DNA of 64,000 nt. Source: Cylicocyclus nassatus (lineage: Eukaryota > Nematoda > Chromadorea > Rhabditida > Strongylidae). Positions within the stretch are counted from its first letter, which is position 1; every line of letters begins with the position of its first letter. A program made the position numbers and the translations under genes. The stretch lies in assembly GCA_958299035.1 (NCBI GenBank), contig CATQJL010000223.1, forward strand, positions 11,025,753 through 11,089,752, read 5' to 3'. Positions 31,791 through 38,502 of the stretch are shown one piece after another. The notes beneath the pieces are model-generated. The model made no database searches. It had not been told where the DNA came from and worked only from the letters and a program-made list of their open reading frames with translations.

Positions 31791-32316
31791 ACTTATGCTC
31801 TATTAATCACTTTTTCTTCGATTTTCATTTCGGGAGAACTTGAACATCGAATATCCTACAAATCCTGTGTGCGTGTACCAGGCAACGCCCTGACTGAGCT
31901 ACTGTTAAGCTCTCCTCGAAAAGCTTAGAAAGGAAGCTTTGTCTTCTGGTTTTTTTCTCCTTTTTCTGGAATGCAGAGTTTCAAAGGTGGTGCTATCTAA
32001 GCATGATCTAAATGGACCATCGGCCACAGGTCGCCAACTTTGCGGTTTGCGGTGTTGACGAACTCGCGTGCTGTTAGTGTTTGCTGACACCTCCAGATTT
32101 CATGAGGAAATTGCATTTGTTGTGATTACGTGTGTGTTTTTTTGCCAATTCCTTGCCACTGGCATCCTGTACACACCGTCAAATCGCAAACCTGGCAATA
32201 GTTCTCGGCAACCTATGGCCGATATTGGTGATAAGTTTGTCGAATTCATTCTGGTCGGATGAATGCAACCCGACAATTTCCATCTAACGTAACTTCATTC
32301 AAGAATATTCCAAAGA

Positions 32317-32769
32317 TGTGAAGCGCGAATAAAATTCAAAGTCAAAAGTGCAAGTCACTAGCCATCGGCGGGAGGCGGAGCTTTAGAGAGTCGGAGTTGG
32401 AATGGCTCGGCTCTGGAGAGCGGCCTCCTCTCCCCTGTGGCTGCGCGCTTCCCGTCTGGACCCTCGTGAGTGAATGTTGTTTTGAAGTATGTCCGCTGTT
32501 ATTGTGGTGTTTAATGTGCCTAATCATGTACTTGCTTTGCAATTTCCCATATTCCTTCTTTAATGTGCTTTATATATTTATTCCGCATTGCTTTTGCTGC
32601 TTATAGATAAAGGTGTGGTTAAAAGATTCTTAGTTTTGAAGAGTAGGAACGGAGATGTAAAGGATCGGAGTTGCGTATGAATATCAACAATGTCGGCGCC
32701 CGCTTGCACATAAAATCAAAGTCTACACTTCGGAACCGCGGGCGTTATATGGAGGTTCCGGCGAGATCA
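32317..32769 (+). repeat. Left 453-bp terminal repeat of the Gag-Env unit
   Basis: Starts TG, ends CA. It contains AATAAA-like (32,328) and TATATATTTA (32,571) motifs. The inverse copy is 38,050-38,502, nearly identical by eye, which implies a recent origin or gene conversion. Confidence 0.9.
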
Positions 32770-34210
32770 CGAAAATCGATAAGATGGCGAAAACCAGCGG
32801 GATGACGAATCGGAAAGATCGCGGAAATTTGTGGACTCACGGTGGCGAGATCATGGAATTTATGAGCTACGAAAATTGGAGAGATAACAACATCGGCGAA
32901 ATTGTTGGAAACAGTGAGAAGAAGGTTTTGAGTGAGAGACACGAGATAGAAGTACTACCAATGCATGATAGCTTTTGCAATGGCGCCACGCAAAATCTAT
33001 CATATTTTCTCGTTGTCTTACATTTGTATTTGGTTTATGCTATCCTTGGCTGTGCATACGATCACCGCTTCTGCTTTTGCATGCTTAGTAAGTTTCAGCT
33101 AATAATCGGCAAGATGACAGTCACACTCGCTCATTTTTTTAACCGCGAAGGAAGAAAATGCCGAAAGAATAGTGGAAAGGAAACAAATATAAGTGACTGG
33201 GAGGAAAACTCCGACGGGTAACGTAGAGAGCGAGAAAGAAAAACCCTGCGCAGGTGACGCTCAACTTCGCGGATAAAGTTAGCAAATCAATGTTTTGAGC
33301 GTTCCAGAAAATGTATTTAATGTGTTTTATCGCTTTGCTTTGCTTGCTGTTTATGTTTTTGTGATCGTATGTTCAGATTTCTGGAAGAAACAGGTGAAGG
33401 TACGCAATTGTTCTACGTCTGAGCTGTAATGGTAACGTTTAGTCTTTACCCATTCTCTCAAGTGTGCAAAATTTGCAGCGATTGCAGGAGTGCAAGCTCA
33501 TTCATTGTGGTTGCGAAAGTTCGACTTGCAAAACAGAAAGTGCAAGTTAGTGCCGCGCCCTTTGAGTTATGGCATCGTAAACCTGACATTTGTGAATTAT
33601 TGCCCATAGACCTTAGGTGTAAAGCAGTTTCGCTGCAAAGATGCTTATCGTAACTGATTTGTTTCCGCTCGCCGCTCGTGCACTTTTAACCTCGCTGCAA
33701 TGAATCGTAGACTCCGAAATTTATGTGGCCTCGGGCTCCCCTCATTATTCTTTCCATTTTGTACTTTTGCACAAATGCTCTTTTAAGTTTGAAGGAGGAG
33801 CCTTTGCTCCTTACTCGCAATTCCGATCGTGCCCCGTGCGGTAGGTTTTAATCTGATTTATAGTAGTGTACGTAAGAGCCTTCAAAATTGTCGCTCCGCT
33901 TTTATGTGTTTAGGTTAGAAGCCAATCATCAAACTCTCATCCTCTGGTGCGCTCAATTTCAACTCAAGTTTCTATCCCCTCCTTCAACTTCCAGTAATAG
34001 GAGGTGAGTCTTTTGTATTAGTATTGATATTGGTTAGTTTTCTCTCTCAAGTTTTCACAGAGTGATATTATTGTGTAGTCCAAAACCTGAACTTGTTTTG
34101 AAACTGAGTTTCTCTGAAAATATTATTCTCTCATTTTTCTTTCTCCTTCAATTTCTTATTACTTTTGTGTAAAAAAATCCATAATATTCATATCTTTCCT
34201 TTTTCCTTAC
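32770..34210. other. Leader region between the left repeat and the Gag-Env ORF
   Basis: About 1.4 kb without a recognisable domain. A 145-codon frame at 32,784-33,221 is low-complexity in composition and unrecognised. A pyrimidine-rich tract at about 34,120-34,235 could be a 3' splice site region for the downstream ORF. Confidence 0.4.
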
Positions 34211-37200: not shown

Positions 37201-38074
37201 GCTTCAACGACCTCTACCCTCATCACCAAAGTCCACGACTACTGTCTCTCCAAACCTTTCGAAGAAAGCTCGTGAAGTGGATTCTTATTATCGAGAAACG
37301 TATAATAATATTTGTAATCGGCAGTACCTCAACACCTTGCGAATTCGCACGTTCAGTACTGTAGAGCCGACATGGGCAGCAAGAGAACTTCTCCAGAGGA
37401 ATGATGTAGTAGCAACGTTACAGGACAGTGAACTCTTCGTGACACGTTGCAGACCTGTGCACCCACAGAAGATTTTTGAAGACCACAGGGTGAATGACAC
37501 CTGCTACGTGCTTACACCCGTACAAGCTGATGATGCTATATGGTTCGCTGTACCCGGAACTCAAGATCTGCTCCCTATATCGGCCACTACTCCCTGCCCA
37601 TATTTACCTCAAAGGAGATCTCATCATCTTCAATACGTATTGCCCCCAAATAACCTACAACCGGCTCATCTGTTCCTCTTCAATCCTCCTTCGGTTTACT
37701 CCCAGAGTCATGGATACTTCACACCGTTCGCGCGATTCTATCTCCAGGTCCTCGAACAAGACCAAGAGAATTTGGATAATCGACTTCAAAAACGAGGAAT
37801 ATTGGATGATGCCCTGGATAGGATCAGATCTGCCAAAACTTCACTGGGAAAATCTATTCACTCCATCTACCAAACGGCCACTGAGAAACTTTCGGCAGGC
37901 GTGAATCAAATCAAATGGTCTCTAATCTATTTCATCTTGTGGGTCTCTGTACCCATCGTCGTTGTTTTCATTCTGGTTTCCGCATGTGTGATTGGCTTCA
38001 AGTTGTACTTCGCCCGCAAAACAACCACAGCCGCAGCCTCCGCTATGATTGATCTCGCCGGAACCTCCATATAA
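34277..38074 (+). CDS. Gag-like capsid / Env-like glycoprotein fusion ORF (no pol)
   Basis: One uninterrupted frame of about 1,265 codons. The frame has no ATG at its start; the first in-frame ATG is 34,514 (codon 80), and upstream splicing is possible. Residues about 85-290 resemble retrotransposon Gag (capsid-like helices, including an FEEFLEEYRDLI segment and WETLVTTLAKKF), followed by a coiled-coil-like stretch. Residues about 300-355 are RG-rich, an RGG-type basic region in place of a CCHC zinc knuckle. A hydrophobic signal-like segment at about 389-408 precedes a Cys-containing ectodomain with N-glycosylation sequons, a basic cleavage-like site at about 666-670, a Thr-rich mucin-like tract at about 838-870, a Pro-rich tract, a second dibasic site (QKRG) near 1,172, and a C-terminal membrane span at about 1,214-1,243. 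The layout is that of capsid plus envelope protein. The glycoprotein family is inference from layout; no enzyme domain is present. Confidence 0.75.
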   Translation: MVQSPSKLETKKLTEREKRLLERQKKTEQRGRPSTSSWTPEKKEGEPESSRRSTSAEPPPERKDYKGTKSTSSKSTQSTMEANNDQLSLYQTCRLLGDRLVKFSGIGDRTFEEFLEEYRDLIERLRIPHPKAKVLLPMYLTGPARIKYNNIENVQNLDWETLVTTLAKKFKNDAYLSNLRDELHNITQGKDSVAEFAQKVYNKCKFAFQGMDKDLTNQMAIDFFIKGLNPQIRKAMRRLPEAKDFDAVVAAAEKEHRILQQEMHEDRDTIHAINAIIADDKLDRLERELNTLKIQQARRPTASQMRGRGNFRGSSRPFPSGYNFYNRPRGTTYPNRRRPFRGRPRGGPYWQGSFRNPPYNPEMPTTSTYPYPTPAESNPRQLFNASHLLCIVAITMMSLTALASAQSYQVCGTNPSANIIALPVPVNCTVSSEEPLMRMPVRLYTETDEPLRVNATKCYRDVVKVAITNFLYIRTKREIVERFRLSVTRELCDQMRATGKAHDHDLEQILPGFYATNEVEDDQYSLPLWGTNHYLRSIYTLEYGDLASFDGKRVISSLANLQNCTLSDGFCLLKEETIMWEPVNSPSLCPYKFAGSFNSYVTAKFALIPQSELAFEFYSDATAYAEIAVRCGFSGFSLTTSHHVLIFPQLPTHLSLQRYILEESLHRREKREVRYITDSTGARSSYEMIPKQSEPLIRRLFGITELTQLPYFATTPIKEPRIIREMEKWNVTNRDFQLRRRLYAAEDPRLTVLRTIRYAEYRWKQLLEFEKVRKTRMYTYAEFSTQRDLQMGISPIFDEYLAEEFGPARIVIGNNTSTIPIPFYTIITSPVEDLPPIPIITTTTTTRAPTTRRTTTSTTTTRSTTTTKHYDEVTDYPDDYVADVFQFDSTSQPTQAPPTTTTQTPRPRLTQKPLPITLPERPRTAPSFSTRIPPTQAPSQSFHRVPPRPLATPSTRLPIRPPNLPVQTATLQIQTLQRPLPSSPKSTTTVSPNLSKKAREVDSYYRETYNNICNRQYLNTLRIRTFSTVEPTWAARELLQRNDVVATLQDSELFVTRCRPVHPQKIFEDHRVNDTCYVLTPVQADDAIWFAVPGTQDLLPISATTPCPYLPQRRSHHLQYVLPPNNLQPAHLFLFNPPSVYSQSHGYFTPFARFYLQVLEQDQENLDNRLQKRGILDDALDRIRSAKTSLGKSIHSIYQTATEKLSAGVNQIKWSLIYFILWVSVPIVVVFILVSACVIGFKLYFARKTTTAAASAMIDLAGTSI

Positions 38075-38502
38075 CGCCCGCGGTTCCGAAGTGTAGACTT
38101 TGATTTTATGTGCAAGCGGGCGCCGACATTGTTGATATTCATACGCAACTCCGATCCTTTACATCTCCGTTCCTACTCTTCAAAACTAAGAATCTTTTAA
38201 CCACACCTTTATCTATAAGCAGCAAAAGCAATGCGGAATAAATATATAAAGCACATTAAAGAAGGAATATGGGAAATTGCAAAGCAAGTACATGATTAGG
38301 CACATTAAACACCACAATAACAGCGGACATACTTCAAAACAACATTCACTCACGAGGGTCCAGACGGGAAGCGCGCAGCCACAGGGGAGAGGAGGCCGCT
38401 CTCCAGAGCCGAGCCATTCCAACTCCGACTCTCTAAAGCTCCGCCTCCCGCCGATGGCTAGTGACTTGCACTTTTGACTTTGAATTTTATTCGCGCTTCA
38501 CA
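38050..38502 (-). repeat. Right 453-bp terminal repeat of the Gag-Env unit (inverted)
   Basis: Reverse complement of 32,317-32,769. It provides the last codons and the stop of the Gag-Env ORF. Confidence 0.9.

What the first reader, a model, noticed from the sequence alone, without database searches (positions are those of the whole stretch)
32316..38502. Gag-Env fusion gene without pol, inside 453-bp inverted terminal repeats
The sequence shows one open frame joining a Gag-like capsid region, an RG-rich basic segment, a signal-like segment, an Env-like ectodomain with mucin-like tract and cleavage-like sites, and a C-terminal membrane anchor. It has no protease, RT or integrase. The terminal repeats have LTR-like TG...CA ends but opposite orientation, and CAAAG flanks the unit. 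Known LTR elements have direct repeats; known TIR transposons do not carry gag and env. It may be a non-autonomous particle-forming element or a domesticated capsid-envelope gene in transit.
Basis: partly seen in the sequence, partly recalled or inferred. Interest (0 to 1): 0.88.

Follow-up and report, generated by a model that had tools for sequence, protein, structure and literature searches.

The report
Retrovirus-like element with misprimed inverted end
In a horse-parasitic worm, a retrovirus-like element that makes its shell, envelope and enzymes as one long protein left a defective copy whose far end is a backwards copy of its near end, most likely because a short DNA primer stuck in the wrong place while the virus RNA was being copied.

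Summary
In detail: 453-nt arms, 100% identical and inverted, enclose an intact Gag-Env frame without pol. The window lies in Cylicocyclus nassatus (inferred). "Fusion" is the wrong reading: relatives in other nematodes carry Env between Gag and protease in one chain (Gag-Env-Protease-RT-Integrase where complete), and RT sequence follows env in all 7 other genomic env matches. The unit is the 5' half of such an element. Four siblings with ordinary direct LTRs show that each arm is LTR (433 nt) + primer binding site (18) + CA: plus-strand strong-stop DNA plus 2 nt. At the junction native env reads ATCTCGC, complementary to the last 7 nt of the primer site. Best explanation: strong-stop DNA misprimed on env, was extended to the 5' end, and folded back to complete the second LTR. 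Both arms share an LTR haplotype absent from 7 near-identical LTRs. Host-repeat paralogs show the flanks contiguous, so this was one insertion. Among 45 LTR matches (a lower bound) it is the only inverted pair. The unit should be unable to transpose, but its two LTR promoters converge. I met no Gag-Env-Pol order in the paper listings and passages seen.

The parts
32317..32749 (+). 5' LTR, native orientation, TGTGAAGCGC...GGGCGTTATA, 433 nt
   Evidence: same two ends in the LTR copies aligned over their full length except one (L024, one base different in the first ten); 5'/3' LTR pairs of the four siblings 0-1 differences
32750..32767 (+). primer binding site TGGAGGTTCCGGCGAGAT (18 nt)
   Evidence: identical after the 5' LTR of 4 of 4 siblings; the following two nt vary CA/TT/AC/CC
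32770..34513 (+). untranslated leader (with a 145-codon frame, not studied)
   Evidence: 98.7-99.6% identical to three siblings over LTR plus most of the leader
34514..35437 (+). Gag part: capsid 34529-35146, RG-rich basic segment after it
   Evidence: PF03732 E 1.4e-9; capsid fold
35438..38074 (+). Env part: signal-like segment ~35438, ectodomain, mucin-like tract ~36770-37277 (by eye), anchor ~37922-37990; frame stops inside the inverted arm
   Evidence: PF24664 21.1 bits, E 8.9e-5, below cut-off 27
38050..38058 (+). junction microhomology TGATCTCGC shared by native env and the reverse complement of PBS end + CA
   Evidence: 4 of 4 siblings read TGATCTCGC|GAATACAC, window TGATCTCGC|CGGAACC
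38052..38069 (-). second PBS, inverted
   Evidence: reverse complement of 32750-32767
38070..38502 (-). second LTR, inverted, 100% identical to the first
32313..32316 (+). AAGA before the left LTR, equal to the last 4 nt of the family's polypurine tract (GGGGTAAGA)
   Evidence: alternatively part of a CAAA(G) duplication plus GA or A
31639..32312 (+). left half of the host repeat carrying the insertion (inverted end 31639-31791)
   Evidence: 34 genomic matches to 31800-32316, the window included, 20 of them ending at 32312
38503..39236 (+). right half of the same host repeat (inverted end 39089-39236)
   Evidence: directly contiguous with the left half in paralogs L053, L055, L056, L057

Best explanation
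A defective copy of a Ty3-type, env-carrying retroelement whose native polyprotein order is Gag-Env-Pol. During reverse transcription the plus-strand strong-stop DNA (U3-R-U5-PBS) failed to transfer to the minus-strand PBS. Its 3' end (..GCGAGAT) annealed to ATCTCGC in plus-sense env sequence (probably the second packaged RNA) and was extended through env, gag and leader to the 5' end. The new strand then folded back on its own strong-stop sequence and copied U3, giving two identical inverted LTR+PBS arms and no pol. This preformed molecule was inserted once into a host repeat. Shown: arm composition, complementarity at the junction, single LTR haplotype, flanks contiguous in paralogs. Inferred: RNA as template, fold-back completion, and the mode of insertion (integrase, or end joining with a polypurine-tract remnant). 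Expected behaviour (inferred): no transposition (no pol, no polypurine tract before the right LTR, no sense-oriented 3' LTR), possible Gag-Env expression from the left LTR, and antisense transcription from the right LTR.
For: Each arm is LTR 433 + PBS 18 + 2 nt. Junction complementarity to the PBS 3' end is 7 nt, the joint best of 5,291 leader-gag-env positions examined (two sites reach 7); counting the CA it is 9 nt, the single best. In 4 of 4 siblings alignment to the unit continues exactly 9 nt into the arm, to 38058. Both arms carry one LTR haplotype that differs from each of 7 near-identical LTRs, from four other insertions, at 2 to 7 sites. Left and right flanks are contiguous in host-repeat paralogs: gap 0 in 4 of 7 examined; of the other three, one has a 3-nt gap, one a 25-nt gap, and one matches only in part. 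The four siblings have direct LTRs, polypurine tract, PBS and a 4-bp duplication, 4 of 4 each.
Against: The 2 nt (CA) shared beyond the 18-nt PBS must be chance (about 1 in 16) if strong-stop DNA ended at 18 nt. A second site with 7-nt complementarity exists at 36675. The family makes 4-bp duplications directly against TG (9 of 10 insertions scored), and this unit does not: it has either no duplication plus AAGA, or CAAA(G) plus GA/A with a CA deletion in the host repeat. Two of the four gap-0 paralogs (L055, L056) have the same sequence at the site and lie 13 kb apart in opposite orientation, so they may be one event. The progenitor is not among the siblings found (the three closest ~0.6-1.3% different). 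Only one such unit was found, so recurrence cannot be checked. No raw reads were available.
Confidence: 0.84

Rival explanations
1. Genomic rearrangement: two elements inserted in opposite orientation were joined by microhomology-mediated deletion between env of one and the PBS of the other.
For: 9-nt microhomology at the junction; the family is young and its LTRs are nearly identical.
Against: Flanks should come from two separate sites, but they are contiguous in host-repeat paralogs; both arms share one haplotype absent from the 7 other near-identical LTRs; the breakpoint falling at the PBS end would be chance.
Confidence: 0.06
2. Assembly or haplotype artefact: a normal provirus misassembled so that its end is flipped and pol is lost.
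For: Raw reads were not available; one copy only.
Against: The junction obeys base-level rules of reverse transcription, the flanks fit one site, and the unit is 6.2 kb on a 91.7-Mb contig.
Confidence: 0.04
3. Autointegration: an integrase-processed LTR end attacked an internal site in env, giving an inversion product.
For: Autointegration gives deletion or inversion circles (PMC2644782, passages seen).
Against: The joined end contains the 18-nt PBS, which a finished LTR end lacks, and the junction shows 7-9 nt complementarity.
Confidence: 0.02
4. One reading: a distinct non-autonomous class with terminal inverted repeats, or a gag-env gene being domesticated.
For: Intact 1,186-codon frame; gag-env codon differences from three siblings are mostly synonymous (syn/nonsyn 16/5, 11/7, 28/14).
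Against: One inverted pair among 45 matches; the constraint is shared with ordinary siblings, so it says nothing about this copy; no transposase by Pfam in the long frame (the rest of the unit was not scanned).
Confidence: 0.03

Closest known systems
Ty3/Gypsy (Metaviridae) LTR retroelements
   Same: Gag fold, PR-RT-RH-IN order within pol, best PDB match of relative P0012 is Ty3 Gag-Pol, E 7e-79, LTR/PBS/PPT layout, 4-bp duplications
   Different: Env lies between Gag and protease in the same frame; the window copy has inverted LTRs and no pol
Atlas virus and belpaoviruses of nematodes (PMC9094657, passages seen)
   Same: Nematode env-bearing element encoding a single polyprotein
   Different: BEL/Pao pol, order Gag-Pol-Env, class II phlebovirus-like Env
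Anakin BEL-Pao elements of mosquitoes (PMC7642597, passages seen)
   Same: chuvirus-like glycoprotein captured by an LTR element
   Different: BEL-Pao family, insects; other BEL-Pao Envs are described there as downstream of the polyprotein (Anakin's own order was not seen in the passages)
Tas element of Ascaris (as cited in PMC9094657, passage seen)
   Same: Env with weak similarity to herpesvirus gB; one relative here also hits Glycoprotein_B, E 3.9e-5
   Different: grouped with BEL-Pao in PMC7642597, with Env downstream of the polyprotein; that passage lists the Env origins so that Tas pairs with Phlebovirus and Cer-7 with Herpesvirus, so the two papers disagree
Cer1 of C. elegans (PMC10309623, abstract and passages seen)
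   Same: Gypsy/Ty3 element of a nematode
   Different: extra ORF lies 3' of pol and belongs to a nuclear export factor, not an Env
DIRS elements (recalled; mentioned in a passage of PMC12440569)
   Same: inverted terminal repeats (recalled)
   Different: tyrosine recombinase; none found here

Membership tests
Ty3/Gypsy LTR retroelement (the family) | LTRs in direct orientation | tested here: met
   4 sibling elements, ~11 kb between LTRs on the same strand
Ty3/Gypsy LTR retroelement (the window copy) | LTRs in direct orientation | tested here: not met
   arms inverted
Ty3/Gypsy LTR retroelement (the family) | PR-RT-RH-IN order, Ty3-type RT | tested here: met
   P0011, P0012, P0014 of 5 proteins scanned; P0013 lacks an RT hit and P0015 ends after protease; Ty3 best PDB hit
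Ty3/Gypsy LTR retroelement (the family) | PBS after 5' LTR, PPT before 3' LTR, short duplication | tested here: met
   PBS 4 of 4 siblings, PPT 4 of 4, 4-bp duplication 9 of 10 insertions scored (4 siblings, 6 solo LTRs; one solo LTR has none; 3' LTRs L019 and L022 without a fetched partner and partial L025, L026 not scored)
Plus-strand strong-stop mispriming product | inverted arm equals LTR + PBS, joined at its PBS end | tested here: met
   433+18 (+2)
Plus-strand strong-stop mispriming product | primer-template complementarity at the junction | tested here: met
   7 nt, joint best of 5,291 positions
Plus-strand strong-stop mispriming product | both arms from one molecule, one insertion site | tested here: met
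   indirect (haplotype and paralogs, not reads)
Class III (gB / Monjiviricetes-like) fusion glycoprotein | profile match above curated cut-off | tested here: inconclusive
   window 20.4 or 21.1 bits against cut-off 27; 6 of 11 alignment members match at E<=0.05; Meloidogyne relative 31.9 bits, above cut-off
Class III fusion glycoprotein | class III fold | tested here: inconclusive
   Env model pLDDT 43.5, pTM 0.27, not usable
Autonomous retrovirus | pol | tested here: not met
   absent from the unit
TIR DNA transposon | transposase in the unit, or a multi-copy class with these inverted ends | tested here: not met
   no transposase by Pfam in the long frame, rest of the unit not scanned; one inverted pair of 45 matches, a lower bound
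Infectious retrovirus | particles with functional Env | not testable with these tools
   needs worm material

The most novel reading that the evidence does not exclude
The family is a nematode retrovirus lineage that builds virions from one Gag-Env-Pol membrane polyprotein. Gag stays in the cytosol, an internal signal segment threads Env into the lumen, and the Env anchor returns the chain so that protease, RT and integrase are again cytosolic, locking Gag, Env and Pol near 1:1:1. The window unit, with two identical LTR promoters facing each other across gag-env, would be a natural double-stranded RNA source against that lineage.
Probability: 0.25. Interest if true: 0.85.

Novelty: new variant of a known kind. 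Interest (0 to 1): 0.6.

Why it matters
First, it gives a base-level record of a failed plus-strand transfer that ended up in an assembled animal genome, a step usually studied in vitro. Second, it leads to a retroelement lineage, seen here in strongylid nematodes and Meloidogyne, with Env between Gag and protease in one frame; that layout raises direct questions about topology, stoichiometry and infectivity that can be tested in worms.

Tried and rejected
TIR transposon and gag-env domestication (one inverted pair only). Autointegration, which I favoured until sibling LTRs showed the PBS inside the arm. Solo-LTR insertion in inverted orientation: neither arm has a duplication of its own (4 to 8 nt, offsets up to 2). 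Two-insertion microhomology deletion: flanks contiguous in paralogs. My early reading of TG...CA as the LTR boundary and of the repeated GGCGAGATCA as an alternative LTR end was wrong. Env structure: poor model, no fold search made on it. Viral contig scan: 7 stretches matched a pattern, none confirmed. Rfam 0 matches, tRNA scan of the window 0 genes. PDB by sequence with the ORF: 0. Primer tRNA: by recall it looks like tRNA-Gln; the genome pattern search for it did not complete. The right-flank and gag searches of the genome did not complete either. Protein searches: 3 used; two of them scored only the ~8,000 candidates sharing most words, so relatives may be missed. Paper searches: 10 used; 'gag-env-pol' + 'retrotransposon' returned 0, which covers only open-licence PMC papers.
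Full report
What is there. The window holds two perfect inverted arms of 453 nt, 32317-32769 and 38050-38502, around an intact frame whose first ATG is 34514 and whose stop, 38072-38074, lies inside the right arm. The stop-to-stop frame is 1,318 codons, against a maximum of 195 in 300 shuffles. Pfam finds Retrotrans_gag (E 1.4e-9) and a weak Monjiviricetes_fusion match (E 1.5e-4, 20.4 bits, below its cut-off of 27) and no pol domain. The capsid segment models well (pLDDT 82, pTM 0.58). 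Its best Foldseek matches in the PDB are Arc, PNMA2, MLV, PEG10 and dArc capsids; probabilities are near 1, but no E-value is below 0.001 and TM-scores by query length are about 0.3-0.5. In the viral library one match is below 0.001, a metavirus ORF1 (3.6e-4). The Env model is poor (pLDDT 43.5).

Where it comes from. P0004 of Cylicocyclus nassatus is 96-100% identical to the frame over two shared blocks and lies on a contig of 107,728,306 bases, the length of contig C1 of the window's own assembly. I infer that the window is C. nassatus. Its place is G000:C223:11025753-11089752.

Gag-Env is the front of a Gag-Env-Pol polyprotein. By Pfam and BLASTP together, P0001, P0002 and P0012 (hookworms) and P0003 (Cylicostephanus goldi, partial, its Gag seen by BLASTP only) run Gag, Env, protease, RT in one chain; P0002's Env is seen by BLASTP only, and its Gag match is under the cut-off. 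P0012 continues to integrase, and P0011 has part of Env then protease to integrase. P0009 (Heligmosomoides) aligns to the Env query over 98% and has gag-like and protease-like sequence by eye (its Pfam scan was lost). P0015 (Meloidogyne floridensis) has the fusion-glycoprotein domain (31.9 bits, above the cut-off), a Glycoprotein_B match (E 3.9e-5), and then protease; its N-terminal Gag has no Pfam hit, is gag-like by eye, and is 21% identical to the window capsid in the alignment. P0013 and P0014 have pol domains but no scored Env domain. P0005 to P0008 and P0010 break off in or after Env, or skip to RNase H; I treat them as partial models, not as gag-env units. In the window's genome the env 3' part has 8 matches. 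In all 7 others RT sequence follows env, with the protease stretch covered in 5, and the in-frame protease is readable at the junction of the four closest. So pol was lost from the 3' end, not from between gag and env.

The arms decoded. The arm has 45 matches in the genome (40 first-look candidates, all scored; the tool calls such counts lower bounds). Four pairs on the same strand about 11 kb apart are sibling elements with direct LTRs; the window's is the only opposite-strand pair within 20 kb in that list. Siblings fix the anatomy: LTR TGTGAAGCGC...GGGCGTTATA, 433 nt (443 in the 83% copy); PBS TGGAGGTTCCGGCGAGAT after all four 5' LTRs, followed by CA, TT, AC or CC; polypurine tract ending GGGGTAAGA before all four 3' LTRs; a 4-bp duplication in 9 of 10 insertions scored, four siblings and six solo LTRs, with one solo LTR lacking it. 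Hence each arm is LTR + PBS + 2 nt. LTR plus PBS is the established composition of plus-strand strong-stop DNA (textbook knowledge, recalled).

The junction. Three siblings read ..GCTATGATTGATCTCGC|GAATACAC and one reads ..GCTATGTTTGATCTCGC|GAATACAC; the window reads ..GCTATGATTGATCTCGC|CGGAACC. ATCTCGC is the reverse complement of the last 7 nt of the PBS. Among 5,291 positions of leader, gag and env, two have 7 nt of such complementarity, this one and 36675; counting the two following bases, this one alone has 9. Alignment of all four siblings to the unit stops at 38058, exactly at the end of this shared stretch. This is what a strong-stop DNA that primes on env instead of on the minus-strand PBS would leave.

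One molecule, one insertion. Both arms carry the same LTR haplotype, and each of 7 near-identical LTRs from four other insertions differs from it at 2 to 7 sites. The left flank is a repeat with 34 matches, the window included, 20 of them ending at 32312. In the 7 paralogs fetched, left and right flanks are adjacent with gap 0 in four, 3 nt apart in one and 25 nt apart in one; the seventh matches only in part. Two of the four (L055, L056) read alike and lie 13 kb apart, so they may not be independent. Thus the flanks look like one site, which argues against a fusion of two separate insertions; rearrangement of a normal provirus in place is unlikely because the right flank adjoins the U3 end, not the U5 end. 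Of six paralogs printed at the site, five read ATTCCACAAAG or ATTCCACAATG and one ATTCCAGTTGGG. The window reads ATTCCA-AAGA-[unit]-CAAAGCC. Two readings remain. Either AAGA is a remnant of the polypurine tract and there is no duplication (end joining), or the local repeat had lost CA and the flanks are a CAAA(G) duplication with GA or A left from the tract (integrase). A 5-mer match at offsets up to 1 or 2 arises by chance with frequency 0.004 or 0.009, so I leave this open.

How it works. Proposed order: polypurine-primed strong-stop DNA; mispriming on env, probably of the second packaged RNA; extension through gag and leader into the 5' R; fold-back onto its own strong-stop sequence to copy U3; insertion. 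The fold-back accounts for the perfect identity of the arms, and copying of a still attached primer could account for extra tract bases on the left end only. These last steps are inferred. The unit should not be able to repeat the cycle by itself: no pol, no polypurine tract before the right LTR, no sense-oriented 3' LTR. Its two LTRs point inwards, so sense gag-env and antisense RNA could be made from one locus. LTR-derived small RNAs bound to exWAGO are reported in strongylid worms (PMC13195028, listing and passages seen), which makes this worth testing; nothing here shows it.

Age and constraint. Sibling LTR pairs differ by 0 or 1 nt, and the unit differs from the three closest siblings by 0.4-1.5% per piece. 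Gag-env codon differences from the three siblings are 16 synonymous to 5 nonsynonymous, 11 to 7 and 28 to 14, with 831 and 2,703 sites. The excess of synonymous change per site holds for env alone (12/4, 7/4, 19/12 with 629 and 1,981 sites). The counts are small and no test was run; they suggest recent selection on the family's Env. One sibling differs from the unit by gap columns within this frame, described only.

Comparison. Pol is Ty3-type. Atlas virus is a single Gag-Pol-Env polyprotein (PMC9094657, passages), Anakin joins a chuvirus-like glycoprotein to BEL-Pao (PMC7642597, passages), and Tas has a gB-like Env (cited in PMC9094657; PMC7642597 lists its origin otherwise); Cer1 has its extra ORF after pol (PMC10309623, abstract and passages). 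I met no Gag-Env-Pol order in the listings (15 of 26 papers shown; 15 of 87; 6 of 6) returned none; I met no integrated inverted-LTR copy of this origin in the listings (4 of 4; 1 of 1; 15 of 770). I opened six papers in all, none in full. The library holds open-licence PMC papers only, so both statements are weak.

Noticed in passing
window 48331-53168: A separate Ty3/Gypsy element with ~250-nt direct LTRs, CAGTT on both sides, TGGCGATC PBS-like and AAGGGGAGAGA PPT-like tracts: an ordinary control in the same window.
   Followed up: partly
window 46224-46791 and 47009-47575: A 568-nt inverted duplication (98.4%) in a reverse-transcriptase-like sequence followed by a GIY-YIG-like frame (Penelope-like by eye, recalled); a second pair 46094-46220 / 48180-48306 is also 98.4% inverted.
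   Followed up: no
window 31639-32312 and 38503-39236: Host repeat of ~1.2-1.4 kb with ~150-nt inverted ends and 34 genomic matches (a lower bound) to its left part; MITE-like, not classified.
   Followed up: partly
window 32784-33221: 145-codon ATG frame in the leader, conservation not tested.
   Followed up: no
L054 (host-repeat paralog): A ~25-nt extra stretch, apparently a tandem duplication, at the very site where the unit inserted in the window copy.
   Followed up: no
P0015 (Meloidogyne floridensis protein): Env domain matches both Monjiviricetes_fusion and, under its cut-off, herpesvirus Glycoprotein_B profiles, a possible link between the two fusion-protein families in a nematode element.
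   Followed up: no
window 10450-11218: 56-bp tandem array, 14 copies, open in several minus-strand frames.
   Followed up: no
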